64,000 nucleotides of DNA from Bacteroidota bacterium (GTDB lineage: Bacteria > Bacteroidota > Bacteroidia > Cytophagales > Cyclobacteriaceae). Below the pieces are notes generated by a model, which searched no databases, was not told the origin of the DNA, and saw only the letters and a list, made by a program, of their open reading frames with translations. Numbering within the stretch: the stretch's first letter is position 1; every line of letters starts with the position of its first letter. A program made the position numbers and the translations under genes. The stretch spans positions 124,001 to 188,000 of the forward strand of contig JAFDYY010000001.1 of assembly GCA_018267195.1 (NCBI GenBank), read 5' to 3'. Of the stretch, positions 5,845-55,613 are shown in pieces.

Positions 5845-7749
5845 CTATTTGTCGAGTATTTCGTACCTCGAATAATTGCTTTTATACTCGGGCACCAATT
5901 CTTTCATCAGGGCTACACTTTTCAATTCATTTTTATCGTACAATAAATCATTAAAAAGTTCTACGTACCGATTGATTTCTTCGTAGGGATACTTCTTTAC
6001 CCTGGCTATCATAATTTTTTCATGATGCGTAGAAATTGTATCCTCCTGATTGTTTAGCAGTTCTTCATAAAGTTTTTCTCCTTCGCGAAGCCCGGTAAAA
6101 ACAATATCAATATCCTTTCGAGGCTCGAGGCCAGAAAGCCAGATCATTTTTTCTGCCAAATCGAGGATTTTTACCGAACTCCCCATATCAAAAATAAAAA
6201 TCTCCCCTCCCTTACCCATCGTGCCGGCCTCCAAAACCAATTGACAAGCCTCGGGGATGGTCATGAAGTATCGAGTGATCTCCGGATGGGTTACCGTTAC
6301 GGGGCCGCCTTCCTGTATTTGTTTTTTAAACAATGGAATAACGGATCCATTTGAACCTAAAACGTTGCCAAATCGGGTAGTAACAAATGCTGTACGTTGT
6401 TTGCCCTGTGTTTCAAGATAATCGTTATATGATTGTACATAAATCTCGGCTATCCGCTTGGCACATCCCATAACATTAGTGGGGTTTACCGCCTTGTCGG
6501 TAGATATCATAACGAATTTGGCCACTCCCCATTCAACAGCTAAATCGGCCACAGTCTTTGTGCCTAACACATTGCATTTAATTGCTTCTGATGGGTTACT
6601 CTCCATCATTGGAACATGTTTGTAGGCAGCCGCATGATAAACAATGGAAGGCCGATGCTCTGCAAAAATAGTACGCATCCGGTCGGCATCATTAATATCG
6701 GCCAAGTACCAGAATAAACGAGAGCTTACATCCATCGATCTGGATTCCAGTTCTAATTCATATAAAGCTGATTCTGCTTGATCAATAAGAATAATTGAAC
6801 TTGGGTTAGCCGATGAAACTTGCCTGAAAATCTCCGAACCAATGGAACCGGCTGCCCCGGTAATCAATACTCTTTTACCGCGCAGATCCGATTCAATATT
6901 TCCATTCTTTAACTTAATGGATTCGCGACCAAGCAATTCTTCAATATTAAGATCTTTAATTTGATTAATACTCAACTCTCCCCTCACCCATTTCTCTACC
7001 GGTGGAACTGTGCGTACTTTAATTTGATTGCGCACACAAGTATCCACGACTTTATTCTTTCTATCCAGTGAAATCGTGGTGGCGGTAAAAATTACTTCAT
7101 CTACGTTGTAGTCACTCAATAGGCTATTAAGGTCTATCACACCTGCATCAAAAATGGTAATTCCGTCTATTACCTTTCCAATTTTGTCGGGGGCATCTTC
7201 CAGAAACCCCACTACCTTCATACGCGGGGTTGATTCCAGCACATGACGGGTAATAATACCCGTTTGGCCGGCTCCAAAAATCATGATCCGGAGTTGATTG
7301 ATCATCGAATTCCGGTAATAAGAAAACACTTGCTTAACCAGTAGCCGGTAATAAAACAAAAGCAAAAAAGAAGACAACCAACTAATCAAAATAACTGAAT
7401 AGGGAATCAGGTTGGGTTTATGCCCCAGGCTAAGAATTAAATTAGTCGTTCCTACCAGGGTTAAATTCAATGCGTTCATATAAAAAATGCGAACGCCATC
7501 TTGTGTGCCGGTGTATCTGATAATTCCCCGGTGGCTGTTGGATAGTAAAATAGAGATTAGCCCACAAAAAGAATATAGAGCGATACCAAAACCGAACTGG
7601 TTCCTATCCAATTCATCCATTGAAAAATTGAACCGTAATAAATACCCCAATAGTACAGAAAAGGAAATCAGCGCTACATCAATAAAAATAATTACCCACC
7701 TCGGAAGAATTTTGAGGTTGCGGATAAAACGAATAAAAAGACGGATCAC
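5845..7749 (-). CDS. UDP-GlcNAc 4,6-dehydratase, PglF/WbpM/CapD type
   Basis: Membrane-anchored nucleotide-sugar dehydratase (634 aa) that makes UDP-4-keto-6-deoxy-GlcNAc at the inner face of the cytoplasmic membrane. The N-terminal 130 residues hold four hydrophobic membrane segments. A CoA-binding-like Rossmann domain follows (MIFGAGQTG, near residue 155), then the SDR catalytic domain with GxxGxxG as TGAAGSIGSE. The membrane PglF/WbpM class replaces the usual SYK triad, and this protein shows the matching STDKAVNPTNVMGCAK segment. It is the last gene of the leftward operon and overlaps the small candidate exosortase substrate by four bases. Together with the aminotransferase, acetyltransferase and phosphoglycosyltransferase of the same operon it completes a bacillosamine-type pathway. 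Confidence 0.93.
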   Translation of the reverse strand: MIRLFIRFIRNLKILPRWVIIFIDVALISFSVLLGYLLRFNFSMDELDRNQFGFGIALYSFCGLISILLSNSHRGIIRYTGTQDGVRIFYMNALNLTLVGTTNLILSLGHKPNLIPYSVILISWLSSFLLLFYYRLLVKQVFSYYRNSMINQLRIMIFGAGQTGIITRHVLESTPRMKVVGFLEDAPDKIGKVIDGITIFDAGVIDLNSLLSDYNVDEVIFTATTISLDRKNKVVDTCVRNQIKVRTVPPVEKWVRGELSINQIKDLNIEELLGRESIKLKNGNIESDLRGKRVLITGAAGSIGSEIFRQVSSANPSSIILIDQAESALYELELESRSMDVSSRLFWYLADINDADRMRTIFAEHRPSIVYHAAAYKHVPMMESNPSEAIKCNVLGTKTVADLAVEWGVAKFVMISTDKAVNPTNVMGCAKRIAEIYVQSYNDYLETQGKQRTAFVTTRFGNVLGSNGSVIPLFKKQIQEGGPVTVTHPEITRYFMTIPEACQLVLEAGTMGKGGEIFIFDMGSSVKILDLAEKMIWLSGLEPRKDIDIVFTGLREGEKLYEELLNNQEDTISTHHEKIMIARVKKYPYEEINRYVELFNDLLYDKNELKSVALMKELVPEYKSNYSRYEILDK

Positions 7750-7964
7750 CGGCTGGTTTTTTTCTTCTGATCTGTAATCAATTTCTTAATACCATATAAC
7801 CCTCCTAAGCCCAGCAAATACTCAATACCGGTAATTGGTACCGGTGGCGGGCAAGGCGGCTTAGGGCAAGGCCGCCCTCCTCCCGGCTGGGCAGAAAGGG
7901 TTATACTTACCCCTATAAAGAGAGACAAAATCAAGTATTTAAAAACTTTAATAATGCGTTGCAT
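7746..7964 (-). CDS. Small tail-anchored protein, candidate exosortase substrate (PID/PIT-CTERM-like)
   Basis: A 72-residue protein with the layout of a sortase or exosortase substrate. Residues 1-25 are a Sec signal peptide ending LSA. Residues 26-43 are a Gly/Pro-rich linker with two cysteines (PCPKPPCPPP). Then comes the motif VPITG (42-46), a short hydrophobic segment (47-59, GIEYLLGLGGLYG) and a basic tail of KK and KKK. The motif, hydrophobic helix and basic tail parallel PEP-CTERM signals and closely resemble the short Bacteroidota proteins annotated as PID-CTERM; here Thr replaces Asp. It sits seven bases after the giant secreted protein and overlaps the PglF-like gene, in the same operon as an exosortase. 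Substrate status is inference. Confidence 0.72.
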   Translation of the reverse strand: MQRIIKVFKYLILSLFIGVSITLSAQPGGGRPCPKPPCPPPVPITGIEYLLGLGGLYGIKKLITDQKKKTSR

Positions 7965-7971
7965 GGGTGGT

Positions 7972-10900
7972 TTAATCTTTTATCACGCGGATAATGGTAG
8001 TTGTGTTTCCCTGATTAATTCTTACAAAATAAATGCCGGCACTTTCGTGTGAAAAATCGTAACTGGAAACTTGTTTTTGTCCATCTCCCACAAATCCTAA
8101 AACAGATATCCGCGAGCCTACCGCATTGTACATTTCACCAAAAGCCTGATCAGCATCAGGAACTTCCAAATACAATGTTCCTTTTACCGGCACCGGGTAG
8201 GCTTTAATCTTATCCGATAGATTCTCTACTGCCGTAACCACCATGTCTTTGTTAGGAGCCGTAACCGAACAACCCTGCGAGGTAACTATTAACCCATACG
8301 TGCCCGATTGTGTTAAGGTAAGCGTTTGTCCCGTTGCTCCGCTTATAACTGATCCGTTTAAGTACCATTGGTTGCCTGCCGCATAGTTAGATTGTAGTGT
8401 AGAAAGACCGGTAACCGTTATGGTAGCGGGGGTAAGATTTACAATATTAGCTGTAACGGGAGACTTAGGTCCTTCGCATCCCAGATTGCTCGTCATGGAA
8501 ACATAGTATGTTTTAGCTTTACTTAAACTGTCGGTAACAAACGTAGCCGATTGAACCGGGTAAGGAACGGGTGCATTAAGTGAATCGTACCAGTTGTAGT
8601 ACCCGCTTCCGGTTGCCCCAGATGCGGTAAGCGTAACTGATCCCAGACCGCAAGAAGTAGAAGATAATACCGTAGGAGCTTTAGGAGAGGAAACTAAATT
8701 AACCGATGAGGTATCGGATAAAGACAGTGCCTGACAAAAATTATTAGACGCCTGAACCGTAAACGTGTTTTTACCTAACGCTAAGTTCTTAGAGGGTACT
8801 GTAAAAACAATATTCGAACCATTTCCCTGAACAGGCGAGCCTATGGTAACATTAGAGGACGATTTAAGACTATAGTAAAACTCAGAAGAGGTATTCTTGA
8901 TTGTTACCTTAGCTAAAGTGGTATCGCAAACCATACTGCCATTTGCCACAATAGAAGGCGGCAAGTTAGAATAAGTAAACAATAGACTAAACCGAGTCGA
9001 ATCTATAGAGGCCGGTTTGGTTTGATCAATAGAAAAAGAGTATGCCTGAGTCTGGCGAATATCTATCTGCGAATTGGGTATGTATTTATCTACCAGTTTT
9101 ATTGATAATGAAGCTGGCATCGATTGAAATTCGCTAAACTCTAACGAATAATTACCCGATACAACATTGGTAATTTTTAATGGTACCGTCATCGCACAAG
9201 CGCTATTATCAAAAGGCATGGCGTGAATGGCAAACGGTTCATTAACCGGAGAAAGTGATGAAAGATTTAAATAACCATATTGGTTATTTAATTTTCTAGC
9301 GTCATACCGTTTATCAAACCCAACCGTAGCCGAATCAGAAAAATAGATTACGGTTTCATCGCGAAGAGCATTAACATCGGTAAGCGCCACCCGAATTAAA
9401 TTAGAAGGCTCGGCCTGCCTAAAAAAAGTAGTTTGTTGACCCGCTACTTTTACATTTTCAGAGACCCCTACCACGGGAGCTGCTGCATTGGCATGCACCC
9501 AAAATCCTTGCCCGGTAGCCACATACTGAGTGCCTCCATTCGTACCTACACCATTAACATAGGCTGCAAAAACCGGGTTGGCTGTATTATAGTCGTCAAT
9601 ATAAATGGCATCGTCCACATTGGTTTTAGTCCATCCCGAGCCTGCCTTCCAATCTATCGTTGAAGGATAAGGGTTGCCCACTAAATTCCAGCCATCAGCC
9701 GATGCGTTGCCTGTATTGGTATAGGTTACCGGCAAATTAAACGAGCCGCTCCAGATAGGTCCTGTTAAAGACCATTTGGCCATGCCGCTGCCTGATACCG
9801 GTGGGTCGCTGCCAAAAACAAAAAGGGAATATCCTCGCCCTTTAACAAAACTTGCTGTATTGTCTGTTCCGTCAGCCGGAAAATCAGTCCAGCCAACATC
9901 AATACCTCCAGCCTGTGTTTCATTATACCAAGACATCGCGGCTGATCCCGGATTTGAGTTCGTTACCCCGGAAACCACACTGGCTCCGGTAAAATTACCG
10001 GTTATAGGGAGCGAGTTTTGAAGATCGGCCACGTTTGTGTTCACAGGTGATGATATATCATGATATACCTGATAGTTATAAGCCGCTACTCCTATTTTAC
10101 TCATGTAGCGTTGCACGGTTACTTTCCCTGTGATAGAACTTCCGGCCGGAATAGTGGCAATGCTCGCATCAACGGTTGGCCGGTCGGCCGTAGATAGCAA
10201 GGTAAATGGACAACTTGCATTAATGGTTAAAACGGCCGGGTTAGGAACTCCTATTAAATTCACAATACCCAAAACATCTGCTCCGGCTGTGGTGGCCAAG
10301 GTTAGGTCATTGGCGTTGGTGCCTCCGGTAAGTGTTAAATTCGTAAATATTATTTTATTACTGCCCAAAATTTGTTTGGCCGTATTGCCTGAAAATAAAA
10401 CCGTGCTGCCCGTTGCCGTAAAGGATCCGTTATTAGTCAGGCTTCCTGTTAACGGAAAAGATGCCGGTGTGGTAAAGCTTCCAGCCGCATCAATAACAAA
10501 GTTGTTAAAGGTAGGTATTGTTCCCGAAATAGTTACCGGAGCCCCCACATGAACCGTTCCGTTATTGGCGTTAAATGTTCCCGCATTTGTAAAATTTCCA
10601 TTTAAGGTTAACCCGGTTGATGCCGCGGCAGACGATGCCGTAAAGGTTCCGTTATTAACCAATGTGCCAACCGAAACATTGTTCGATCCGGATGAAAATG
10701 TTCTGCCTGAGTTCGTAATGGTAAAGGCATTCGTAACATTTAATGCCTGCCCGGCCTGAAGAGTAATCGTTGTACCGCTGTTGTTATTCAATGTTACACT
10801 TAACACATTACCGGAAGAAGGAATTTCCAATCCGGTTGTTTTAGATGTGCCTGTATAAATAACATCCCAAGGGCCGCCTCCGGGGGAAGAGGTAGAAATT

Positions 10901-13737
10901 ACACCGGCAGCGCGCGAAATGTTCGTACCATTGGCAAGGCTCAGGTTATTGGCTGTAATCGCCAGCGTACCAGCCGTAAGAGTAAGTGTGCCCGAAGCAT
11001 TGGTCATGGACACAGGTGAAGATATATTGAACGTTCCGGCTGTCAGGGTCAGGTTATTGGAAACCGTTTCTGCTGAACTAGCCGTTAGGTTTCCTCCCGA
11101 TTTATTTACTGTTAAGTTGTAAAAAGGCGTATTCGATGTTCCGGAAATGGTTTGCACATTGGCTCCCGTAAAATTAACGGTGCCCGTTCCGCCTGAAAAC
11201 GTTCCATTGTTTGTAAAGTTACTTTGAATATTCCATGTTGCCGGAGCCGTAACGGAAGCCACATTGTTTATTGTAACGGCATAATAAGAAGGGTTTAAAG
11301 TACCCGAGATAACTGACGATCCATTAAAAACAACTGTACCTGTGTTGTTATTAAACGCTGTGCCTGAAAGTGTGAGGTTGCCAGTCAATGTCAGTGTGGC
11401 GCTGGACGAAGTAAAAGTGCCGGCCGTTTGACTTAAAAGAGAAGTAGAAACGGCATTAGCCGCACAAGTAAACGTTCCACCCGTTCCGTTTTGAGTAATG
11501 CCATCCGATCCAACCGAAAGAGCCTGACCTAACGTAATGGTTCCACCGGTCGTTGAAACTGTTAATCCCTTTATCTGTGGAGATCCGGCAGAGGGTATTT
11601 CTAAGCCTGTTGTAACACTGGCGGTTCCGGTGTAGATAACCGACCATAGGCCTCCTGAGGGGCTATTTGTTGTTATTGAACTGGGGCTGGCTCCGGTTAC
11701 ATTTCGGGTTATTACGGAATTGCTCCCCATCGTTAAAAGCCCAGGGGTGGAAATATTAAGGGTACCGTCTTTAAGGGTTAAAGAACTCGTTACATTCATT
11801 CCGGGTGCATTAACACCTACCGTACCCGATGCATTGGTATAATTTATAGTAAGGGATTGAACCGTGTTATTCGTATTTAAGAAAACAAGATCGGATGTAA
11901 TGGCCGCCCCGCTATTCATGGTAAGGGTGGATGTTCCGCTGGCCGAGAGTGCTCCCGTTCCTGAAAAAGTAAGATCGCCTCCGGTCGTCAACGATTGATT
12001 ATCGAAAGCCAGCACCGTGCCGGTTGCCAACGAAATATTTCCGGTTAAGGTAGTAGCCCCTCCTAATGTTACGGTACCATTACTAATGGTGGTGGTGCCG
12101 GTAACCGTAATCGGATTTCCAAAGTTTACTGTGCCCGAAGTGGTCCGGCTCACCGTTAGCGAACCAAATGTTTGAGTGCCTGACGGAAAGGGGAAAATAC
12201 CAAATGCCCCCGATCCATTAATAACAAGATTAGAGTTAGCTGCCAAAGAAATGGTATTGCCATTGGGTGTAATCGTGCCACCTGTGGTAGAAGCTGTAAA
12301 CATGGTAAGAGACCGGCCAGTACCTACGCTAAGCGAACCATTAGTAAAAATGAGATCATACGGAATAACCAAAATGGCCGCACCGCCATTGCCGGCATTT
12401 GCGGTAGTAAATGTAACTCCACTTGAGTTATCAATTTCGGTGGTTACATTTCCTGTACTGGGGTGTCCATTTCCCAAACTTTGTGCACCGGTTGCGCCTG
12501 CATACACAATGCGGCTTCCACTGGCATACGTTCTTACGCCAGAAGTTCTAATATTTCCTAAAGTTGTTCCGGTAACAATAGCCCCCGAAGGGTTAATTGA
12601 GCCGGCTCGTAATATGCCATTTAATGTAAAAGTGCCTGATCCTTGAATGCGCGAATCCGTTACGTTGTCCCACATATTAACCGGCATATTTAAAGTGGTC
12701 GATGAGCCCACTGTAAAATTCACTACAGAAGAAATAGTACCTACTGAATCGTTAGAGAATGTTTGCATTCCATTAAAATTGAAATTAACAGCCCCCGCCC
12801 CTCCGGTGCGCGTCAGAGTACCTCTTTTCAATAAGAAATTTCCCTGGTTCATATTCCAGACTCCATTACCGGCCCCGGATGAAAACGAAAGAAGCCCGTT
12901 GGCTCCCCCGGTATTCATGTTAAAATCACCGGTCAGGTTTAAGGTGTACGAACCGGTTGTTTTTAAAATAGATCCGCTGGTGTTGGTTGATTGGTAATAA
13001 AAATTACCTCCAATGTTTATAATAGCTCCTCCGCCCGTAGTAACAAAAGATAATCTTGAATTTCCTTTAACTACCAGGTTGTTTCCGATATTAACCAACG
13101 GAGTTTGTGAAGTTGCCACTTGTAACTGTTGTCCGTTCGTAGAATAGATAATAAAATCTGTTCCGACAGAGGTTAAGTTTCCGGCAAAATTTATAGTTCC
13201 GGTTTGAGCGCAATTCCAGGTAAACGTATCAAAGTTCTGACTCAACCCACTGGGCACCGTGTTTGTTGTTCCGGTTATATTGCAAAATGAACCAGCCACC
13301 CAGGTTGCTGTTACTATGTTCCCTCCGTTTTGTGAGTGGTTATAGTTGCCATTTACAGTAACTAATGAACTGGAACCTGTTACCGTGCCGCTATTTTGTA
13401 ACGTTCCGTTAATAGTTGTTGGATTCGTAAGGTTAAGATTGAGAGTTATTCCTGCATTAACAACAAGTGTTCCATTCACCGTCAGGTTATCAATATTTAA
13501 TACGGCTGTAACGGTTACCGTATGAGTTGCCAAAATTGTTTTTACAGCTGCAGACGTACCCGATGGAGGCGCTGCCGCTGCTGCTTGCCAGGACGATCCA
13601 TTATAAATTTGCCAAGTAGAGGCCTGATTCCAATTGCCACTATGTGCCGTTTGGTAATCACCGGTAGTTTGACAAAAACTGTTTCCCCAGCTTATCAGAA
13701 GCACCAATAGCGCAAGGCCAGTAAATTTCACTCTCAT
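7972..13737 (-). CDS. Giant secreted repeat protein with type IX secretion sorting domain
   Basis: A 1921-residue surface or secreted protein. Residues 1-22 are a signal peptide. The next segment (GNWNQASTW) resembles the start of G8-type or parallel beta-helix domains, and about 1200 residues of Gly/Thr/Ser/Asn-rich repeats with recurring NGT, TLTLTG and GTVNF motifs follow, typical of a long beta-helix. A roughly 75-residue unit occurs at least twice, marked by VIYTGT followed by TTGLEIPS. A non-repetitive lectin- or jelly-roll-like region, then two Ig-like segments, precede the C-terminal sorting domain (YPVPVKGTLYLEV to IIRVIKD) that directs export by the type IX system. It is the longest gene in the operon. 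Adhesin or matrix function is inferred. Confidence 0.88.
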   Translation of the reverse strand: MRVKFTGLALLVLLISWGNSFCQTTGDYQTAHSGNWNQASTWQIYNGSSWQAAAAAPPSGTSAAVKTILATHTVTVTAVLNIDNLTVNGTLVVNAGITLNLNLTNPTTINGTLQNSGTVTGSSSLVTVNGNYNHSQNGGNIVTATWVAGSFCNITGTTNTVPSGLSQNFDTFTWNCAQTGTINFAGNLTSVGTDFIIYSTNGQQLQVATSQTPLVNIGNNLVVKGNSRLSFVTTGGGAIINIGGNFYYQSTNTSGSILKTTGSYTLNLTGDFNMNTGGANGLLSFSSGAGNGVWNMNQGNFLLKRGTLTRTGGAGAVNFNFNGMQTFSNDSVGTISSVVNFTVGSSTTLNMPVNMWDNVTDSRIQGSGTFTLNGILRAGSINPSGAIVTGTTLGNIRTSGVRTYASGSRIVYAGATGAQSLGNGHPSTGNVTTEIDNSSGVTFTTANAGNGGAAILVIPYDLIFTNGSLSVGTGRSLTMFTASTTGGTITPNGNTISLAANSNLVINGSGAFGIFPFPSGTQTFGSLTVSRTTSGTVNFGNPITVTGTTTISNGTVTLGGATTLTGNISLATGTVLAFDNQSLTTGGDLTFSGTGALSASGTSTLTMNSGAAITSDLVFLNTNNTVQSLTINYTNASGTVGVNAPGMNVTSSLTLKDGTLNISTPGLLTMGSNSVITRNVTGASPSSITTNSPSGGLWSVIYTGTASVTTGLEIPSAGSPQIKGLTVSTTGGTITLGQALSVGSDGITQNGTGGTFTCAANAVSTSLLSQTAGTFTSSSATLTLTGNLTLSGTAFNNNTGTVVFNGSSVISGTLNPSYYAVTINNVASVTAPATWNIQSNFTNNGTFSGGTGTVNFTGANVQTISGTSNTPFYNLTVNKSGGNLTASSAETVSNNLTLTAGTFNISSPVSMTNASGTLTLTAGTLAITANNLSLANGTNISRAAGVISTSSPGGGPWDVIYTGTSKTTGLEIPSSGNVLSVTLNNNSGTTITLQAGQALNVTNAFTITNSGRTFSSGSNNVSVGTLVNNGTFTASSAAASTGLTLNGNFTNAGTFNANNGTVHVGAPVTISGTIPTFNNFVIDAAGSFTTPASFPLTGSLTNNGSFTATGSTVLFSGNTAKQILGSNKIIFTNLTLTGGTNANDLTLATTAGADVLGIVNLIGVPNPAVLTINASCPFTLLSTADRPTVDASIATIPAGSSITGKVTVQRYMSKIGVAAYNYQVYHDISSPVNTNVADLQNSLPITGNFTGASVVSGVTNSNPGSAAMSWYNETQAGGIDVGWTDFPADGTDNTASFVKGRGYSLFVFGSDPPVSGSGMAKWSLTGPIWSGSFNLPVTYTNTGNASADGWNLVGNPYPSTIDWKAGSGWTKTNVDDAIYIDDYNTANPVFAAYVNGVGTNGGTQYVATGQGFWVHANAAAPVVGVSENVKVAGQQTTFFRQAEPSNLIRVALTDVNALRDETVIYFSDSATVGFDKRYDARKLNNQYGYLNLSSLSPVNEPFAIHAMPFDNSACAMTVPLKITNVVSGNYSLEFSEFQSMPASLSIKLVDKYIPNSQIDIRQTQAYSFSIDQTKPASIDSTRFSLLFTYSNLPPSIVANGSMVCDTTLAKVTIKNTSSEFYYSLKSSSNVTIGSPVQGNGSNIVFTVPSKNLALGKNTFTVQASNNFCQALSLSDTSSVNLVSSPKAPTVLSSTSCGLGSVTLTASGATGSGYYNWYDSLNAPVPYPVQSATFVTDSLSKAKTYYVSMTSNLGCEGPKSPVTANIVNLTPATITVTGLSTLQSNYAAGNQWYLNGSVISGATGQTLTLTQSGTYGLIVTSQGCSVTAPNKDMVVTAVENLSDKIKAYPVPVKGTLYLEVPDADQAFGEMYNAVGSRISVLGFVGDGQKQVSSYDFSHESAGIYFVRINQGNTTTIIRVIKD

Positions 13738-13756
13738 CCCCTTTTGTGGTAAAATG

Positions 13757-13764
13757 CAAATATA
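13757..13764 (-). promoter_or_regulatory. Bacteroidota -7 element upstream of the giant protein gene
   Basis: TATATTTG on the minus strand matches TAnnTTTG 19 bases before the ATG. A TTTG lies 24 bases further upstream, slightly longer spacing than usual for the -33 box. It suggests that the giant protein, the small tail-anchored protein and the PglF-like gene can be transcribed separately from the upstream aminotransferase/exosortase genes. Confidence 0.5.
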
Positions 13765-13806
13765 AATTAAAAATACGAAGAATTACGGCAAATAAATCCA
13801 CTTCAA

Positions 13807-14940
13807 CTAAGCTGTGTAACCTGCGGTTTCAATCAATTTTTTAATAATTATTTCCTGATCTTCTTCCGATAAGCTGGTGCCGCTGGGCAGGCACAGTCCG
13901 TTTATAAACAAATGCTCAGCTGCACCCGAAAGATAGCTTGGGTATTGGTTAAAGGCAGGCTGCAGGTGCATCGGTTTCCATAAGGGGCGCGATTCAATGT
14001 TTTGACCTTCCAAAGCAAGTCGTATTTTTTCATTTAAACCGTTTTTTGATTTTACAGGCATTAATATGCTGGTTATCCATCGGTTAGAAAATGTATTTGA
14101 ATTTTCTTCTTGAAATAAAAATCCATGTGTTTTCAACTCCGATTGGTAGGTTTCAAAGATTTTACGCTTTTGTTTCAGCCGTTCATTAAGCACAGAAAAT
14201 TGCCCTATTCCAATACTTGCACTGATGTTGCTCAACTGGTAATTGTATCCAGTAGTTTCGTGATGATAGTACGGCACAGCACTTCGGGCTTGCCCTGATA
14301 AATATCGGGCCCTCTCTATCCAATCTTTGTTACATGACACCAGCGCACCGCCACCGGAAGTAGTAATAATTTTATTCCCATTAAATGAATAAATACCGAT
14401 GTCGCCCAAAGTACCGGCATGTTGGCCCTCGTAAACTGAACCGAGCGCTTCAGCCGCGTCTTCCACTACCGGAATCGTATATTTTTTAGCTACGTTCCGT
14501 ATCTCATTCATACAGGCCGGCATACCAAACAGGTGTACTACAATGATCGCCCTGGGTTTCTTGCCTAACCTGATCCGATCTTCAATGGCTTCTTCCAGTA
14601 ATTGGGGATCTAAACACCAACTTTCTTTTTCCGCATCTACAAAAACCGGCACAGCCCCCTGATATAGTATGGGGTTGCAAGATCCGGCAAATGTAAAGGT
14701 GGGGCAGATTACTTCATCTCCCTTTTCCACTCCCAAAACAATTAGAGCTAAGTGAATGGCTGCCGTGCCTGAATTGACGGCCACGCAGTAATCCGTTTGG
14801 TTATACTCTGTTATTTTCTTTTCAAATAAAGCCGTGGCCGGACCTGCAGGCGCTATCCAGTTAGACTGTATAGCCTTTTGCACTTCTTTAATCTCCTCTC
14901 CACCAAGGTGAGGCGGTGAAAGAAAAATCCGTTTCCTCAT
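13807..14940 (-). CDS. DegT/DnrJ/EryC1 aminotransferase, PglE-like
   Basis: PLP-dependent sugar aminotransferase (377 aa) expected to convert UDP-4-keto-6-deoxy-GlcNAc into the 4-amino sugar. It begins IFLSPPHLGGEE, very typical of PglE/EpsN-type enzymes. Other markers are GTAAIHLAL in the cofactor phosphate-binding region, VEDAAEALGS and SFNGNK, which holds the PLP-binding lysine. The length is normal. It overlaps the exosortase-associated gene by four bases (ATGA), so the two are translationally coupled. Placement beside PglD-like and PglC-like genes supports the bacillosamine assignment over perosamine- or other 4-amino-sugar synthesis. Confidence 0.92.
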   Translation of the reverse strand: MRKRIFLSPPHLGGEEIKEVQKAIQSNWIAPAGPATALFEKKITEYNQTDYCVAVNSGTAAIHLALIVLGVEKGDEVICPTFTFAGSCNPILYQGAVPVFVDAEKESWCLDPQLLEEAIEDRIRLGKKPRAIIVVHLFGMPACMNEIRNVAKKYTIPVVEDAAEALGSVYEGQHAGTLGDIGIYSFNGNKIITTSGGGALVSCNKDWIERARYLSGQARSAVPYYHHETTGYNYQLSNISASIGIGQFSVLNERLKQKRKIFETYQSELKTHGFLFQEENSNTFSNRWITSILMPVKSKNGLNEKIRLALEGQNIESRPLWKPMHLQPAFNQYPSYLSGAAEHLFINGLCLPSGTSLSEEDQEIIIKKLIETAGYTA

Positions 14941-15350
14941 CTTTTAGCTGATAATTTTTGGAAATATACAGCCGGGATTAATAAGATCATCAATGTTGGG
15001 TTGATAATGAGGCGGTGAAGTTGGGAAAGCAAGGGGGCTGATATTTCGGAGGTACCTTCCCATGAAAGTTTAATATATAAATACACCGGGAGAAGAAGGA
15101 GCCCATCAATGAGTTGAATGGCGATGGCGAGTTGCGTTACTTTTCTGTCTTTAAACCAAGCAACCATAAAGAGCAGCATAAAAAAATCGTTCAGCACAAC
15201 CCGCAAGGTTTTACGCAAAATAAAATGTCCCTCTTCTGAAATATTAAGATCGTTTAAAAACGAAAAATCCTGAAATAAAAAAGTAGCTGCTATGCCCATA
15301 AGGGCAGCAGTCAAAAGAAGTTTATTATACAACCTGTTATGATGACTCAC
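14937..15350 (-). CDS. Exosortase F-associated membrane protein
   Basis: A 137-residue integral membrane protein with four hydrophobic segments (about residues 11-25, 48-66, 75-92 and 110-128). The pattern of FLNDLNISEEGHFILRK, then RVVLNDFF and QLHRLIINP, resembles the small protein that accompanies XrtF-type exosortases in Bacteroidota. It overlaps the exosortase gene by 14 bases and the aminotransferase by four, so all three are tightly coupled. Its biochemical role in the family is not known; a structural partner or substrate-presenting subunit of the exosortase is plausible. Confidence 0.75.
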   Translation of the reverse strand: MSHHNRLYNKLLLTAALMGIAATFLFQDFSFLNDLNISEEGHFILRKTLRVVLNDFFMLLFMVAWFKDRKVTQLAIAIQLIDGLLLLPVYLYIKLSWEGTSEISAPLLSQLHRLIINPTLMILLIPAVYFQKLSAKR

Positions 15351-15882
15351 CGGATTTTTTTCTGACTTGTTTTACCCAAAAAAACCAAAGAATAAAAACA
15401 GCTATATAGATGAACCCCGTAAAAAGATATTTATGAAAAAAATATAACCGTTCAGGAAAATAAAATGCCACGGCATACAGCAGCACAATGCGGGTAATAT
15501 TAAGAATATAAATAACGGCCGTGCCCAGCGATGCAAAGATTATTAAAAGCCTTGATGTACCTTTAAACGCTAACAGAAAACCGACATACACTATTATTAC
15601 GTTAAGGCTATTGCACCCTTCAAAAACATAAATCATATTTTCGCGGTCGTTGGCAATGGGTATGTACTCGCTAAACAGGGAAGGGAAGGCCGCAATACTT
15701 GAATCAAACAAGGAGAGAACCCACACTACTTGAGTTGAAACCATCCGGGTAAAGGGGTCAGACCCGGGGTAGTAGTGTTGAACATAAAAACCGTAGAGTG
15801 TATTCAACACCAGATAAGAGCCCACGAAGGTGGCCAAAAAGTACAACGACTTTTTATTCTCCGTTATCAGTTTCATAATCAA
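15337..15882 (-). CDS. xrtF: Exosortase family protein, XrtF-like
   Basis: Polytopic membrane transpeptidase-like enzyme (181 aa) of the exosortase/archaeosortase superfamily. The three catalytic positions are all visible: Cys90 in VFEGCNSLN, Arg131 in LNITRIVLL and His150 in FFHKYLF, each at or next to a membrane segment. At least five hydrophobic helices are evident. The short single-domain form and the neighbouring associated protein point to XrtF of Bacteroidota. Exosortases recognise C-terminal motif/helix/basic-tail signals and are genetically linked to exopolysaccharide loci; here the enzyme lies between the PglD-like and PglE-like genes. The start overlaps the PglD-like stop by four bases. 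A second ATG two codons in is equally possible. Confidence 0.88.
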   Translation of the reverse strand: MIMKLITENKKSLYFLATFVGSYLVLNTLYGFYVQHYYPGSDPFTRMVSTQVVWVLSLFDSSIAAFPSLFSEYIPIANDRENMIYVFEGCNSLNVIIVYVGFLLAFKGTSRLLIIFASLGTAVIYILNITRIVLLYAVAFYFPERLYFFHKYLFTGFIYIAVFILWFFWVKQVRKKSGESS

Positions 15883-16508
15883 ATTGAGCGGGCCGGAATG
15901 CCCATAATTCTTTTATTGCCTTCAAAGGACTTGGTAACAACTGCTCCCGCCCCGATCCGGCAATCTTGGCCAACCGATAAACCCTGAAGTACTATCGCCC
16001 CCACTCCCACATAACATCGCTGGCCTATTTGCACCGCCCCGGAAATATTTACCGAAGGCATCAGTGAAGAAAAATCGCCAACCACACTATCATGCCCTAA
16101 CGTACACGATAAATTTATCAATGAAAACTTACCCAGCCTTACATGGCATGTAATAAGGACTCCCGCACAGATAATCGAGCCCTCTCCTATCTCCACATCC
16201 GCACTCAGGCAAACACTCGGATGGATAATAGAAGGAAAGGATCGTTTTGACGAATGGAGCTGCTGATAAATTGACTGACGTACTAAAGGCTCGGCAATGG
16301 CAATAACAATCGCCAGATCGGTACGATAATTTTGCAAAAAAGAAAGCCCGCCCAAAACAGGCAGCCCGGCCACTATCTGCCCCTCAGCTTTGCCGTCATC
16401 GGCAAAACCGAGTATGTTCCAGCAAGGTGTTGCCTTATTTATCTGGTGCAGCAACCAAGCCGTTTCTTGCCCAAAACCTCCGGCTCCGTATATAACTAGG
16501 TCTTTCAT
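15879..16508 (-). CDS. Sugar acetyltransferase, PglD/NeuD family
   Basis: Cytosolic acetyl-CoA-dependent N-acetyltransferase (209 aa) expected to acetylate the 4-amino group of UDP-4-amino-6-deoxy-GlcNAc. The N-terminal Rossmann-like substrate-binding domain opens LVIYGAGGFGQE, the signature of PglD-type enzymes. The C-terminal left-handed beta-helix follows with hexapeptide repeats (VEIGEGSIICAGV through VGVGAIVLQGLSVGQDC) and ends GIPARSI. The catalytic His lies in CTLGHDSVVGD. Length matches C. jejuni PglD. It is coupled by a four-base overlap to the exosortase gene and follows the PglC-like gene by about 30 bases. Confidence 0.9.
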   Translation of the reverse strand: MKDLVIYGAGGFGQETAWLLHQINKATPCWNILGFADDGKAEGQIVAGLPVLGGLSFLQNYRTDLAIVIAIAEPLVRQSIYQQLHSSKRSFPSIIHPSVCLSADVEIGEGSIICAGVLITCHVRLGKFSLINLSCTLGHDSVVGDFSSLMPSVNISGAVQIGQRCYVGVGAIVLQGLSVGQDCRIGAGAVVTKSFEGNKRIMGIPARSI

Positions 16509-16540: not shown

Positions 16541-17128
16541 TTATAGCGGCTGGTTCCCCTCAAATTTTTTTTCTTCCAGCGACCGGTCTTTTCTTGGAAA
16601 CAAGAACAGGTTTGCCGTAAGCAAAAGAATTTTTAAGTCGAACAAAAACGAAATATGATGAACATAATAAAGATCTAACTCAAATTTGGTATTCCAACTG
16701 ATCGTGTGGCGGCCATTTACCTGTGCCCATCCGGTAATGCCGGGCCGTACTGTATGCCGGTTCTTTTGTTGTTCGTTCATCCGCGGCAGATATTCTACCG
16801 GTAATGGTCTGGGCCCGATCAGCGACATATCGCCCCGCAGCACATTCCATAATTGAGGCCATTCATCTAACGAAAAATAACGGAGGAAATCGCCCAGCCT
16901 AAATCTTCGTTTTTGTAAGTCGCCTGACGGGCTATCTAAAAGTGTTCGGAACTTATACATAACAAATGGGGTGTTGTTTCTGCCGATGCGTGCTTGCTTA
17001 AAAAAAACAGGGAACTGAAATGTAAAAAAATAAGCTAAAAAAATAAGGCCAACCAGCCATAAACTCAGCACGATCCCGATCAGGCTTAAACCCACATCCA
17101 ACCCTCGTTTACAGTTTGCGGTATACAC
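16541..17128 (-). CDS. Initiating sugar transferase, PglC/WcaJ C-terminal type
   Basis: Monotopic phosphoglycosyltransferase (195 aa) that transfers a sugar-1-phosphate from a UDP-sugar to undecaprenyl phosphate. It starts with the KRGLDVGLSLIG membrane re-entrant helix and continues with the family signature FFKQARIGRNNTPFVMYKFRT, then RRFRLGDFLRYFSLDEWPQLWNV and GPRPLP. The minimal, single-helix size is that of PglC rather than of the large WcaJ/WbaP proteins. With PglF-, PglE- and PglD-like genes in the same operon, di-N-acetylbacillosamine phosphate is the likely substrate; UDP-QuiNAc or galactose are alternatives. Its stop lies about 30 bases before the PglD-like start. Confidence 0.92.
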   Translation of the reverse strand: MYTANCKRGLDVGLSLIGIVLSLWLVGLIFLAYFFTFQFPVFFKQARIGRNNTPFVMYKFRTLLDSPSGDLQKRRFRLGDFLRYFSLDEWPQLWNVLRGDMSLIGPRPLPVEYLPRMNEQQKNRHTVRPGITGWAQVNGRHTISWNTKFELDLYYVHHISFLFDLKILLLTANLFLFPRKDRSLEEKKFEGNQPL

Positions 17129-34008: not shown

Positions 34009-35142
34009 TCAAGAATAGAATTGTCTGATCGACTTGGCCACATATTTTATTTGCTCTTCCGTTAACTCAGGAAACATGGGCAACGAAAGAATTTCATTTT
34101 GCAATTGGCTGGCCACCGGAAAATCGGCAGGCGTATGATTAAGGTATTGGTATGCTTTCAGGTTGGGCAGTGCCGTGGGGTAATGTATGGAGGTTTCAAT
34201 TCCTTTTTCTTTTAAGGAGCGCATTAACTCTTGGCGATCCTTACAGCGGATCACATACAAATGAAAGGTATGTTTGCTGTGCGGCCTTACCCTGGGCAAT
34301 ACAATTTCTTTTACTTCGCTCAGCAGTCGGCTATACAAAGCGGCATGCGCCATGCGCTGATTCGTCCACTTGTTTATATGGTGTAATTTAACTGAAAGTA
34401 TAGCGGCCTGTAAAGAGTCCATCCGGCTGTTAACGCCTTCTATTTGGTGCTCGTGTTTTTTCAGCGCACCATGCCGGGCATACATCCGCAATTTAGTTGC
34501 CAGATCATCATCGTTGGTCATCATACACCCGGCATCGCCATAAGCGCCCAGGTTTTTTCCGGGGTAAAAACTAAACGATGAAGCAATCCCAAAAAGTCCA
34601 GCCTTCGTTCCGCGGTATTCCGAAAAATGAGCTTGTGCACAGTCCTCAATCAAATAAAGAGAATGGGTTTTACAAAAAGACTGAATAAAATCCATCTCGC
34701 AAACCTGGCCATGAAGATGAACCGCCACCACCGCTTTGGTGCGGGAAGTGAGTTTTTGTTTAAGCTGTGTTTCGTTAATACTGTAATATTCGGGATGCAC
34801 GTCTGCAAAGACCACACGGGCTCCGGTTTGCGTAATGGTTTCCGAACTTGAAATCCAACTGTTGGCCACCGTAATTACTTCGTCACCCGGTCCGATACCC
34901 AGCATCTTCATAATGATATACAGAGAATCCGTGCCATTGCCGCAAGAGATGACGTGCTTTACGCCATAAGCTTTTGCAAAATCTTGTTCAAATTGCTGAA
35001 CAAACCGCCCGCCAATAAATGTCATTTCCGTGAACACGGATTTTAGGGCTGTCTCCATTTCATCTTTTATAGACTCATACTGGATGTTCAAGTCCACAAA
35101 GGGGACAGGCAAATATTTTTTTAAATCCGGCATCGAACTCAA
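34009..35142 (-). CDS. DegT/DnrJ/EryC1 aminotransferase, WbpE-like
   Basis: PLP-dependent sugar aminotransferase (377 aa). VPFVDLNIQYESI at the N-terminus is shared with WbpE, FdtB and QdtB enzymes, which act on 3-keto sugars. Further markers are CGNGTDSLYI, ANSWISSSETI, VAVHLHGQVCEM, LIEDCAQAHFSEY and SFYPGKNLGAYGDAG, which holds the PLP-binding lysine. Its position next to a WbpB-like dehydrogenase suggests that it adds the 3-amino group of a 2,3-diamino sugar. It differs clearly from the PglE-like enzyme elsewhere in this locus, so the two serve different sugars. Confidence 0.9.
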   Translation of the reverse strand: MSSMPDLKKYLPVPFVDLNIQYESIKDEMETALKSVFTEMTFIGGRFVQQFEQDFAKAYGVKHVISCGNGTDSLYIIMKMLGIGPGDEVITVANSWISSSETITQTGARVVFADVHPEYYSINETQLKQKLTSRTKAVVAVHLHGQVCEMDFIQSFCKTHSLYLIEDCAQAHFSEYRGTKAGLFGIASSFSFYPGKNLGAYGDAGCMMTNDDDLATKLRMYARHGALKKHEHQIEGVNSRMDSLQAAILSVKLHHINKWTNQRMAHAALYSRLLSEVKEIVLPRVRPHSKHTFHLYVIRCKDRQELMRSLKEKGIETSIHYPTALPNLKAYQYLNHTPADFPVASQLQNEILSLPMFPELTEEQIKYVAKSIRQFYS

Positions 35143-35191
35143 TCCATTATACTTAATGAGAATAATAATCTAAAAGCAATCATTTAAACTT

Positions 35192-36193
35192 TCAACGCGA
35201 AGAATATATCTTATCAATAATCTCTACGGTTTTTAATCCGTCAAACGAACTGGTGGTAATGGTGGCGTTGTGCTGCAATACTTCAATCAGGTTGTCATAC
35301 ACTTTGTCATGGTTGCTCATCGATCCCACGTACGTGCCGTAATTGTTCGGGCGATTTCCTTCCGGCAAATTTTCTATCGTGTATCCTTCTATTTGCTGGT
35401 ACTCTAATTCATTCAAATATTGTCCTCCGATTTTAACCGTTCCTTTTTCACCAAAAATAGTAAGCGACCCCTCCATGTTTTGCCGGTAACTATTTACCGT
35501 GTAATTGATGGTGCCGATAGCCCCGTTATAAAACTCGAGGATCACTACACCGGTGTCTTCAAACTCAATGACTCCCTGATGGGCTAAATTTCCGAAGTAA
35601 GCTTGTGCCTTGCGCACATCGCCTACCATCCAGTAAACCAAATCAATAAAATGACTGAACTGAGTAAACAACGTACCTCCATCCATATTTTTTGTTCCTT
35701 TCCATTCTTTATAATAATCGGCATTGCGATTCCAAAAGCAACTTAATTGAATGCTTAAAATTTTTCCTAACCTTCCTTCATCAATTGCTTTTTTTACTGC
35801 CGCTACCGGGGGATTATACCGGTTTTGTTTAATAGCAAACAGCCGCTTATTAGACTGCTCTGCGGCTTGTATCATCCGACCACAATCTGGTACGCTAATG
35901 GCCATCGGTTTTTCGCACAACACATGAAATCCCGCCCGCAATGATTTAATGGCATGCTCAGCATGCAGGCCATTGGGCGAGCATATTGAAATGACCTCTA
36001 TACTCTTTTCCGTAGCCAGCATCTCCTCCAGCGAGTAGTAAGCCTTTGCCCGGTAGATGCCGGCCAGTTTATCCGCTTTTTCTTTTACCACATCACATAC
36101 GGCCACCAATTGTCCTTTTTTATCAATATGTTCGGCATGACGTTGGGCTATGCGGCCACATCCTACCATTCCAAAATTAATTTTACTTCTCAT
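35192..36193 (-). CDS. Gfo/Idh/MocA oxidoreductase, WbpB-like
   Basis: NAD(P)-dependent sugar oxidoreductase (333 aa). The N-terminal Rossmann motif is FGMVGCGRIAQRHAEHI, followed by the family's EKPMA motif with its catalytic lysine in LCEKPMAISV, and a C-terminal substrate domain (DGGTLFTQFSHFIDLVYWM) with the conserved DxGxHxxD-like pattern altered to have Phe-Ser before His. WbpB-type enzymes oxidise the 3-hydroxyl of UDP-GlcNAcA before WbpE-type transamination. The next gene toward the 3' end is the WbpE-like aminotransferase, consistent with that pair. Its start overlaps the amidotransferase stop by four bases. Confidence 0.88.
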   Translation of the reverse strand: MRSKINFGMVGCGRIAQRHAEHIDKKGQLVAVCDVVKEKADKLAGIYRAKAYYSLEEMLATEKSIEVISICSPNGLHAEHAIKSLRAGFHVLCEKPMAISVPDCGRMIQAAEQSNKRLFAIKQNRYNPPVAAVKKAIDEGRLGKILSIQLSCFWNRNADYYKEWKGTKNMDGGTLFTQFSHFIDLVYWMVGDVRKAQAYFGNLAHQGVIEFEDTGVVILEFYNGAIGTINYTVNSYRQNMEGSLTIFGEKGTVKIGGQYLNELEYQQIEGYTIENLPEGNRPNNYGTYVGSMSNHDKVYDNLIEVLQHNATITTSSFDGLKTVEIIDKIYSSR

Positions 36194-37341
36194 AATTTTT
36201 TTAAAAACGCACGAAACCGCTGTGTGCGTTTCAGCATGTTCATATATTTCTCTTTTAACCTTCTGTCGGATTTAAATTCTAAATGAGATCGGGGTGGCCG
36301 GTGCATAATTTCGTCAAATTGCTCCTCGGTTAGTCCCAACTTCTTAAGTACAAACTCCCGGTCAACCTTTAGTTCTTGTGTCTCATAAAGGGGTTCTTTC
36401 AATTCTTCCAAAGCCTGCGCCCGGCTAATTTGCTCTGAACATATAAGTGTAGAAAGGTGCGCTTTGCGTTTATCCATTTTAAATTTTTCAGGAAGAATAT
36501 AGGCCTGATAAAATTTTGTAAACCGTGATTCGTAATGCTTTCCGCCATAGTCCCTCCAACTCAATTCGCGGCTGATCACTCTTTTAGCTTCTTCTTTCCG
36601 GTAATCAATGTAGTTTAAAATAGAAATAGGGGTCAGCCGAAGCAGTGATGAATAATAAAGGTATTTTTTAAAATCAAAGGTAGGGTACGTTTTTATTTTT
36701 CTTGATCCAAACTGGCGGTGAATGTCTTTTAGATTAGCAAAATCCATTTTAGAATATATCCAACCGGGTGGCATAATGTGTTCGGTTACCACATTGGTAC
36801 CGCTGATTATGTACCCAATCTTCTTCTCTTTGGCCAGTTTATACATTGTGGCAAAAATAGCATGATCCGACACTACCTCAATATCTACTACCGATGCCTT
36901 AAGATAAGCCAGTTGAATATCTTTAAACTCTTCCCAATCTACCACCAGGGTATATAAATCAATGTTCAGTTTCTTAACTATGTTTTCAATATTCATCACG
37001 GCCAGTTCCGAGTTCCAGCCATTATCAAAATGTACCGCTAATGGCCGGAGGCCATGCTGTTTAATTAAATAGGCCACATAGGTGCTATCCACCCCCCCGC
37101 TTAGCCCGATCAGGCAATCGTATTTTTTACCGGCTCCGCTCTGCTTAATTTTACTGATGAGTGCATTCAGTTTTTTACTTCCCGCCTCTCCCTTCAATAC
37201 ATTGGTTGCCTCAGCCGCTTTATACTCATGGTAATAGTTACAAACTCCATTTTCATCAAAGCGAATATCCGGATCGGCAATATTATCCATAATGCTTACC
37301 GTGCATTGGCGGTAGCCGGGATCAGAGGCACTCAAAATCAT
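36190..37341 (-). CDS. N-acetyl sugar amidotransferase, WbpG/PseA family
   Basis: ATP-dependent enzyme of the PP-loop class (383 aa) that converts an acetamido group to an acetamidino group, using ammonia made by HisH2 and delivered by HisF2. The ATP-pyrophosphatase motif LIGLSGGVDSTYVAYL and GTNVVTEHIMP are visible. The N-terminal segment normally carries paired cysteines; here it reads CTVSIMD then CNYYHEY, so only one of each pair is retained. A run of seven G lies within the PP-loop codons. The gene follows the HisF-like gene by seven bases and precedes the WbpB-like gene, making a compact acetamidino-sugar module. Confidence 0.9.
   Translation of the reverse strand: MILSASDPGYRQCTVSIMDNIADPDIRFDENGVCNYYHEYKAAEATNVLKGEAGSKKLNALISKIKQSGAGKKYDCLIGLSGGVDSTYVAYLIKQHGLRPLAVHFDNGWNSELAVMNIENIVKKLNIDLYTLVVDWEEFKDIQLAYLKASVVDIEVVSDHAIFATMYKLAKEKKIGYIISGTNVVTEHIMPPGWIYSKMDFANLKDIHRQFGSRKIKTYPTFDFKKYLYYSSLLRLTPISILNYIDYRKEEAKRVISRELSWRDYGGKHYESRFTKFYQAYILPEKFKMDKRKAHLSTLICSEQISRAQALEELKEPLYETQELKVDREFVLKKLGLTEEQFDEIMHRPPRSHLEFKSDRRLKEKYMNMLKRTQRFRAFLKKL
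37092..37098. repeat. Seven-base G/C homopolymer in the amidotransferase
   Basis: C7 on the plus strand, G7 on the coding strand, within the GG codons of the PP-loop. It is shorter than tracts normally associated with slippage. Confidence 0.7.
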
Positions 37342-37348
37342 TTTTCAG

Positions 37349-47705: not shown

Positions 47706-47709
47706 CTGC

Positions 47710-55598: not shown

Positions 55599-55613
55599 GA
55601 ATAAAAATTTCAC

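What the first reader, a model, noticed from the sequence alone, without database searches (positions are those of the whole stretch)
7746..16508. Exosortase operon with a linked candidate substrate inside a bacillosamine pathway
An XrtF-like exosortase with its Cys, Arg and His in place (residues 90, 131, 150) and its companion membrane protein are embedded, with overlapping reading frames, between PglD-like and PglE-like genes. Further along the same strand, a 72-residue protein shows signal peptide, Pro-rich linker with two Cys, a VPITG motif, a short hydrophobic segment and a basic tail. Exosortases are known to be linked to exopolysaccharide loci, but their target in Bacteroidota and the chemical acceptor are poorly defined. 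The arrangement suggests that the enzyme cleaves this tail and joins the protein to a glycan or lipid made by the same operon.
Basis: partly seen in the sequence, partly recalled or inferred. Interest (0 to 1): 0.82.

Follow-up and report, generated by a model that had tools for sequence, protein, structure and literature searches.

The report
Exosortase with a tiny paired substrate
In many Bacteroidota a membrane cutting enzyme (an exosortase) travels with a protein so small that trimming would leave only about 14 to 22 amino acids, and this mini-protein usually sits right behind a giant protein exported by another route, which suggests two surface-attachment machineries work together.

Summary
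In detail: an XrtF exosortase, its TIGR04127 partner and a 72-aa mini-protein (VPITG, helix, basic tail) lie in one packed minus-strand sugar operon. The proposed pairing is strongly supported. In 148 family genomes exosortase and mini-protein occur as 55 both, 3 exosortase only, 3 mini only, 87 neither; in 396 Flavobacterium genomes 352/5/2/37. Twenty-nine relatives have it linked to xrtF; the motif P and G are invariant. (1) The predicted mature product is only 14-22 residues. (2) The gene directly upstream nearly always encodes a type IX secretion (T9SS) type A protein: 69 of 77 unique mini loci, against at most 6 of 78 random control ORFs. (3) In F. johnsoniae the one strong mini-protein hit maps to about Fjoh_0651 (inferred from gene counts and size), whose published deletion behaves like deletions of xrtF and its partner. 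Cleavage, the acceptor and the T9SS link are not shown biochemically. The window protein fails NCBI's PID-CTERM cut-off. Verdict: a new variant of a known kind, with a testable, unexpected exosortase-T9SS coupling.

The parts
15337..15882 (-). XrtF exosortase, 181 aa (TTG start); Cys90, Arg131, His150
   Evidence: TIGR04128 128.5 bits, cut-off 90; A2 invariant columns include C90, N128, R131, H150; AF2 model mean pLDDT 95.3
14937..15350 (-). XrtF system-associated membrane protein, 137 aa
   Evidence: TIGR04127 39.8 bits, cut-off 35; a profile built from this clade's own members finds it in the stretches around xrtF in 32 of 36 loci of this clade, 12 of 13 flavobacterial loci and 1 of 29 other exosortase loci
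7746..7964 (-). 72-aa candidate XrtF substrate: signal peptide, QPGGGRPCPKPPCPPPVPIT|G, hydrophobic helix, basic tail
   Evidence: only A1 match of the own genome apart from one at E 0.048 inside a 1035-aa frame
7972..13737 (-). 1921-aa protein with T9SS type A C-terminal domain; 7 bp upstream of the mini-protein gene
   Evidence: TIGR04183 26.4 bits (cut-off 23); PF18962 27.5 (cut-off 27), PF19081; a clustered large protein at this place in 30 of 35 loci
13807..14940 (-). DegT-family sugar aminotransferase (PglE-like)
   Evidence: PF01041 321 bits; LegC family model 376 bits, below its cut-off of 420
15879..16508 (-). PglD/NeuD-type sugar acetyltransferase
   Evidence: TIGR03570 206.3 bits, cut-off 160.8
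5845..7749 (-). PglF/WbpM-type nucleoside-diphosphosugar 4,6-dehydratase; its start overlaps the mini-protein stop by 4 bp
   Evidence: PF02719 402.7 bits; overlap
16541..17128 (-). PglC-like initiating sugar-phosphate transferase
   Evidence: PF02397 184.7 bits

Best explanation
The mini-protein is the dedicated substrate of this XrtF. Inferred course: Sec exports it; signal peptidase cuts at A|Q; XrtF recognises the P-[ILF]-[TSG]-G motif plus helix plus basic tail in the inner membrane and cuts there with Cys90/Arg131/His150, as archaeosortases are thought to, moving a peptide of about 14-22 residues onto an amine-bearing acceptor. The nearest acceptor candidate is the amino-sugar glycan or its lipid carrier made by the surrounding cluster. 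The product works with the neighbouring giant T9SS type A protein in building an adhesive cell surface. Shown here: gene order, co-occurrence, conservation, T9SS adjacency. Inferred: cleavage, site, transfer, acceptor, joint function.
For: Co-occurrence (both / exosortase only / mini only / neither): 55/3/3/87 in 148 family genomes, 30/1/1/44 by genus; 64/26/3/203 in 296 genomes across the phylum; 352/5/2/37 in 396 Flavobacterium genomes. All 37 genomes of this family's XrtF clade hold the mini-protein, 30 of them linked. Conserved order PglD-XrtF-TIGR04127-giant-mini-PglF, with PglE usually but not always after TIGR04127. T9SS-A tail directly upstream in 69 of 77 unique mini loci, against at most 6 of 78 random control ORFs with the same model. 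F. johnsoniae: one strong mini-protein at 710501-710767; porZ (Fjoh_0707, confirmed by NF052228) lies 56 ORFs of 100 aa or more further on, which gives Fjoh_0651. The FJ0651, FJ1448 (xrtF) and FJ1449 deletions have the same Table 2 row (PMC10936215, passages).
Against: No cleavage or conjugate data. In F. johnsoniae and F. limi the mini-protein is not behind a T9SS protein, and flavobacterial xrtF has no linked mini-protein. The same Table 2 row is shared by the porU, porZ and aminotransferase (Fjoh_0334) deletions, so the phenotype is not specific to XrtF. Equating the mini-protein with Fjoh_0651 rests on counting: lower ORF cut-offs (80, 55, 40 aa) give 57, 63 and 69 steps and a linear estimate gives 648. 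The F. johnsoniae mini-protein itself matches no NCBIfam model at E <= 0.1. 26 of 90 phylum genomes with a TIGR04128 match had no A1 match, though at most 20 candidates per genome were scored.
Confidence: 0.72

Rival explanations
1. The mini-peptide is a covalent adaptor for T9SS cargo: the exosortase joins its C-terminus to a glycan or lipid, and the T9SS sortase PorU joins the cargo's new C-terminus to the peptide's N-terminus, one mini-peptide being consumed per cargo molecule.
For: Direct T9SS-A adjacency in 69 of 77 loci; several giant+mini cassettes per genome, with minis alike (tail identity median 0.71-0.84) but giants divergent (aligned-identical body fraction median 0.11-0.19) in the three genomes where two or more pairs were compared; in P. 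gingivalis cargo C-termini carry a linking sugar with a seryl group (PMC7468200, abstract, section 15 and passages); in F. johnsoniae the porU and porZ deletions share the Table 2 row of xrtF, whereas sprA and porV differ in one column (PMC10936215).
Against: T9SS anchoring works in P. gingivalis without such a peptide (recalled); another T9SS-A cargo in this window (55819-57411) has none beside it, the own genome holding only one mini-protein; F. johnsoniae has one strong mini-protein hit but many T9SS cargoes (recalled).
Confidence: 0.13
2. Exosortase as plain protease: it only releases the peptide from the membrane; the free peptide then acts as a secreted factor, ligand or chaperone for the T9SS protein or the matrix, with no conjugation.
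For: The predicted product is only 14-22 residues, small for an anchored structural protein; no acceptor identified.
Against: Exosortase, archaeosortase and rhombosortase substrates appear to stay surface-anchored, suggesting transpeptidation (PMC11980579, passages); sugar genes surround the module in this family.
Confidence: 0.15
3. Linkage and co-occurrence only reflect a jointly inherited or horizontally moving surface-polysaccharide module; the mini-protein is a passenger that XrtF never touches.
For: In this family the genes share one operon, which by itself would produce co-occurrence.
Against: In 13 flavobacterial loci no mini-protein is linked to xrtF, and still they co-occur 352/5/2/37 in Flavobacterium; sorting-signal architecture conserved with invariant motif P and G.
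Confidence: 0.06

Closest known systems
XrtF (TIGR04128) with TIGR04127, F. johnsoniae Fjoh_1448/1449
   Same: Family score over cut-off, catalytic residues, companion protein; sister clade in the tree (13 flavobacterial rows and 37 rows of this family joined at SH-aLRT 99)
   Different: Here embedded in an amino-sugar operon with its candidate substrate; in 13 flavobacterial loci no linked mini-protein
PID-CTERM sorting domain (NF046080), found with XrtX-like exosortases
   Same: Small protein, P-I-[DTSG]-G, hydrophobic helix, basic tail; 18 of the 19 family genomes with a PID-CTERM match over cut-off also have a TIGR04128 match
   Different: Window protein scores 13.5 bits, cut-off 26; usual signature V-P-[ILF]-[TSG]-G-[ILV]-E instead of P-I-D-G-G; usually one linked copy, whereas four PID genomes have 10-12 matches
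PEP-CTERM/EpsH exosortase A system
   Same: Polysaccharide locus, C-terminal sorting signal, multi-spanning enzyme (PMC1569441, search listing and start of abstract only; rest recalled)
   Different: PF09721 not reached (14.2 bits, cut-off 25.7); substrate is a mini-peptide; T9SS cargo partner
T9SS PorU / Wbp-Vim linking-sugar anchoring
   Same: T9SS type A cargo, amino-sugar genes nearby, C-terminal conjugation
   Different: No exosortase or mini-peptide mentioned for it in the passages I read (PMC7468200)

Membership tests
XrtF exosortase (TIGR04128) | Curated score cut-off 90 bits | tested here: met
   128.5 bits
XrtF exosortase (TIGR04128) | Conserved Cys, Arg, His | tested here: met
   C90, R131, H150 invariant in 77 sequences
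XrtF exosortase (TIGR04128) | Adjacent TIGR04127 protein | tested here: met
   39.8 bits, cut-off 35, overlapping gene
XrtF exosortase (TIGR04128) | Cleaves a sorting signal | not testable with these tools
   needs biochemistry
PID-CTERM (NF046080) | Curated score cut-off 26 bits | tested here: not met
   13.5 bits, E 0.048; not filed as a member
PID-CTERM (NF046080) | Short protein with motif, helix, basic end | tested here: met
   sequence and alignment A1
T9SS type A cargo (TIGR04183/PF18962), giant protein | Curated cut-offs 23 and 27 bits | tested here: met
   26.4 and 27.5 bits, both close to the cut-off
Bacillosamine pathway (PglF, PglE, PglD) | All three enzymes as curated families | tested here: inconclusive
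   PglD-type TIGR03570 over cut-off; aminotransferase and dehydratase match broad Pfam families but reach no NCBIfam cut-off shown
PEP-CTERM/EpsH (PF09721) | Gathering score 25.7 | tested here: not met
   14.2 bits; no match at E <= 0.001 in the genome

The most novel reading that the evidence does not exclude
Exosortase and T9SS form one two-sortase pathway in Bacteroidota: the exosortase makes a glycan- or lipid-linked 14-22-residue peptide, which serves as consumable anchor or acceptor for the giant T9SS type A protein encoded directly upstream.
Probability: 0.14. Interest if true: 0.93.

Novelty: new variant of a known kind. Interest (0 to 1): 0.8.

Why it matters
The authors of the F. johnsoniae study name the exosortase substrates as future work (PMC10936215, passage). 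This work offers a specific candidate substrate for XrtF in two large lineages, predicts that an already existing and already phenotyped deletion (FJ0651) lacks it, and points to an unexpected partnership of exosortase substrates with T9SS cargo. It makes the open acceptor question testable on a peptide small enough for direct mass spectrometry.

Tried and rejected
A bare DNA pattern for the motif in the own genome gave 385 matches against 422 for the reversed control: uninformative. PF09721 in the own genome found nothing: XrtF lies below that model. NF046080 in the own genome gave only a weak match at another place (E 0.44), so the PID model misses the window protein. Looking for a linked mini-protein beside flavobacterial xrtF failed in 13 loci; whole-genome searches then found unlinked ones. 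The tandem colony-spreading genes of F. collinsii (PMC9950754, passages) are polysaccharide export and Wzz-type genes, not this system. Structure: the XrtF model is confident but no solved structure matches by fold (best E 1.4) or sequence, so it gave no mechanistic detail. F. johnsoniae UW101 was not among the 80 named loci; I identified genome G532 by its contig length of 6096872 (the reference length is recalled) and by its PorZ, a 2283-bp gene equal to the fragment size in the paper. A second 760-aa ORF lies at 802087; the PorZ model settles the choice for the first (591.9 and 305.3 bits for its two pieces, cut-off 260). Considered and dropped: that the two Cys matter (3 of 30 rows).

Limits of counts. 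The A1 model was built from loci next to xrtF in the same family set, and 10 of the 12 A4 rows come from Flavobacterium genomes, so the fair part of those tests is the near-absence in exosortase-negative genomes. The three mini-only family genomes (G041, G052, G116) are drafts of 570, 270 and 140 contigs. The threshold E <= 1e-4 was chosen after seeing the list; at E <= 0.1, 70 of 148 genomes matched. For the Flavobacterium table the tool listed only 20 of the 42 and 20 of the 39 negatives; I read the other 22 and 19 off the gaps in the handle numbers (15 older handles plus G436-G816 make 396). The genome sets overlap in part, and relatedness was not modelled except by the genus count. In one search I examined 86 loci (best per genome, at most 30 per search), dropped 9 duplicates; 2 of the remaining 77 had no upstream ORF of 110 aa or more. 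The tool gave only the number 69 of 75; which six fail was judged by eye and used. The T9SS profile was trained on those 69 tails, so its 27 of 30 against 20 of 1150 favours the positives; the control uses NCBI's own model, but its list stops at families with 6 members, so 'at most 6 of 78' is an upper bound. Clusters are single-linkage and merge paralogues. In one search two short weak matches (L118, L119) were left out of the tree. One search compared pairs in three genomes only (G007, G147, G120; 4, 5 and 2 pairs), after dropping pairs whose giants shared the last 200 residues (meant for overlapping stretches); G101 yielded no pair, G414 and G430 one each.
Full report
What is there. The window carries a long minus-strand polysaccharide cluster. 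Its downstream end reads, in transcription order, PglC-like transferase, PglD-like acetyltransferase, XrtF, TIGR04127 protein, DegT aminotransferase, a 1921-aa protein, a 72-aa protein, and a PglF/WbpM-type dehydratase. Gaps between these run from -14 to +69 bp. XrtF scores 128.5 bits against its curated cut-off of 90, the companion 39.8 against 35, and the 1921-aa protein carries a T9SS type A sorting domain (26.4 against 23). An AlphaFold2 model of XrtF has mean pLDDT 95.3 but no solved relative.

Is the small protein real and linked? XrtF homologues were sought in 148 genomes of the family: 58 have a TIGR04128 match, 42 over the cut-off. Stretches of up to 20 kb around all 59 matches but the window's own were taken and scanned for small proteins with signal peptide, motif, helix and basic tail, first by rule, then by profile. 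Twenty-nine relatives carry the protein on the same strand as xrtF, 3.6-10.7 kb downstream. Alignment A1 (30 rows) has M1, P43, G46, G54 and G58 invariant. The usual signature is V-P-[ILF]-[TSG]-G-[ILV]-E, with exceptions. NCBI's PID-CTERM model gives the window protein only 13.5 bits against a cut-off of 26, so it is a variant and not a filed member.

Co-occurrence (both / exosortase only / mini only / neither). With A1 at E <= 1e-4 the family set splits 55/3/3/87; by genus 30/1/1/44. Of the three exosortase-only genomes, G030 has a PID-like small protein beside its exosortase and G134 has a PID-CTERM match over cut-off; G075 has neither. Across 296 genomes of the phylum the split is 64/26/3/203; at most 20 candidates per genome were scored there, so negatives are soft. 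In 396 Flavobacterium genomes, with a profile from flavobacterial mini-proteins (A4), it is 352/5/2/37. Relatedness was not modelled apart from the genus count.

Tree. Exosortases fall into an XrtF branch (SH-aLRT 99) with a flavobacterial clade of 13 and a clade of 37 from this family, apart from the XrtX-like sequences (quick tree, 26 of 74 inner branches open). All 37 genomes of the latter clade hold the mini-protein; in 30 it is linked, and the other seven are contig ends or unlinked copies. Flavobacterial xrtF has no linked mini-protein in 13 loci, but unlinked ones exist in many flavobacterial genomes. My profile of the TIGR04127 partner, trained on this clade, finds it in 32 of 36, 12 of 13 and 1 of 29 loci of the three groups.

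How small is the product? Signal peptidase most likely cuts at [AS]|Q; 29 of 30 sequences have such a site. From there to the third motif residue are 14-22 residues. The predicted product is an oligopeptide such as QPGDPGGDPDVPIT rather than a protein. This is prediction from sequence only.

The T9SS neighbour. In 35 loci including the window, a large protein clustering with the 1921-aa one stands downstream of xrtF in 30, and a PglF-type gene follows behind it in 29 (counted from its map); the 33 clustered large ORFs are 754-2825 aa long. The rule holds outside this family. Genomes with XrtX-like enzymes carry several PID-type mini-proteins, mostly right behind a large protein with a T9SS-like tail. 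For 77 unique mini-protein loci from three searches, the C-termini of the upstream ORFs were scanned: 69 match TIGR04183 at E <= 0.01, 6 do not, 2 have no such ORF. The same scan of 78 randomly chosen other ORFs of 150 aa or more, one per exosortase neighbourhood, shows TIGR04183 in at most 6 (it is not among the 25 commonest families listed, the last of which have 6 members). With my own T9SS profile, 27 of 30 mini-proteins in the fetched neighbourhoods have such a neighbour against 20 of 1150 other ORFs (the profile was trained on such tails). The three that fail are two mini-proteins directly beside an exosortase gene (G071, G030) and the F. johnsoniae one. Within three multi-copy genomes the mini-proteins are much more alike (tail identity median 0.71-0.84) than the giants before them (median aligned-identical fraction 0.11-0.19). 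That fits a generic partner made together with each cargo. It does not show what the partner does.

Link to published genetics. PMC10936215 (passages read; not the whole text) reports that in-frame deletions of xrtF (Fjoh_1448), Fjoh_1449 and a hypothetical gene Fjoh_0651 have the same row in its Table 2: less sand colonisation, much less biofilm, no zorbs. The porU, porZ and Fjoh_0334 (aminotransferase) deletions share that row; sprA and porV differ in one column. The authors leave the exosortase substrates to future work. Genome G532 has a contig of 6096872 bases, the length I recall for F. johnsoniae UW101. Its strongest mini-protein match by far is at 710501-710767 (-), E 7e-15; the next is 3e-4. 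It carries a P-I-N motif and matches no NCBIfam model at E <= 0.1. PorZ (Fjoh_0707) is the 2283-bp gene at 778668 (NF052228 over cut-off). Counting ORFs of 100 aa or more, porZ is the 56th after the mini-protein, which gives Fjoh_0651; cut-offs of 80, 55 and 40 aa, which admit more spurious frames, give 57, 63 and 69 steps, and a linear estimate gives 648. Among the ORFs from seven before to ten after it, only the mini-protein and a 64-aa ORF (a ribosomal L32-like protein, by recall) are short enough for a 434-bp fragment that includes a promoter, as the paper describes for its Fjoh_0651 plasmid. The identification is strong but inferred.

Mechanism. Best reading: XrtF cuts the mini-protein's tail and transfers the short peptide to an acceptor; the acceptor in this family may be the amino-sugar glycan or carrier of the cluster. 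The cluster also holds acetamidino-sugar genes (TIGR03573 and NF038364 over cut-off), which make amine-bearing sugars plausible. In P. gingivalis the linking sugar on T9SS cargo was concluded to be 2-N-seryl, 3-N-acetylglucuronamide (PMC7468200, section 15), and its authors speculate that exosortase acceptors could be similar amino-acid-modified sugars (passage). This gives the boldest reading: the exosortase-made peptide conjugate is the anchor for the T9SS cargo. I give it 0.14.

What is known. NCBIfam names XrtF, TIGR04127, XrtX, XrtY and PID-CTERM. In the held library no paper contains 'PID-CTERM'; three contain exosortase with T9SS, and in the two of these that I opened (passages only) I saw no pairing of exosortase substrates with T9SS cargo. 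Further searches listed nothing whose title or abstract start describes one. The library lacks most subscription papers, so this is not proof of absence in print.

Noticed in passing
window 34009-38730 (-): Acetamidino-sugar gene set: N-acetyl sugar amidotransferase (TIGR03573 over cut-off), AglZ/HisF2 (NF038364 over cut-off), HisH, with a MocA-type oxidoreductase and a second DegT aminotransferase.
   Followed up: partly
window 55819-57411 (-): Subtilase with its own T9SS tail (PF18962 52.4 bits); the own genome's single mini-protein lies elsewhere, so T9SS type A cargoes do not all have one.
   Followed up: partly
L328-L344: Genomes with XrtX-like exosortases carry several giant-T9SS-protein plus PID mini-protein cassettes; in some stretches (L328, L333, L334, L337) histidine-kinase/LytTR-like regulator pairs (kind named by recall) stand beside them.
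   Followed up: partly
L040, L043, L044, L050: Apparent three-gene cassette giant T9SS protein - mini-protein - exosortase in G028, G091, G089 and G023.
   Followed up: no
window 46431-47765 and 52462-55613 (-): Both a Wzt-type ABC exporter with sugar-binding domain and Wza/SLBB plus AAA-type (Wzc-like) export genes lie in the same cluster.
   Followed up: no
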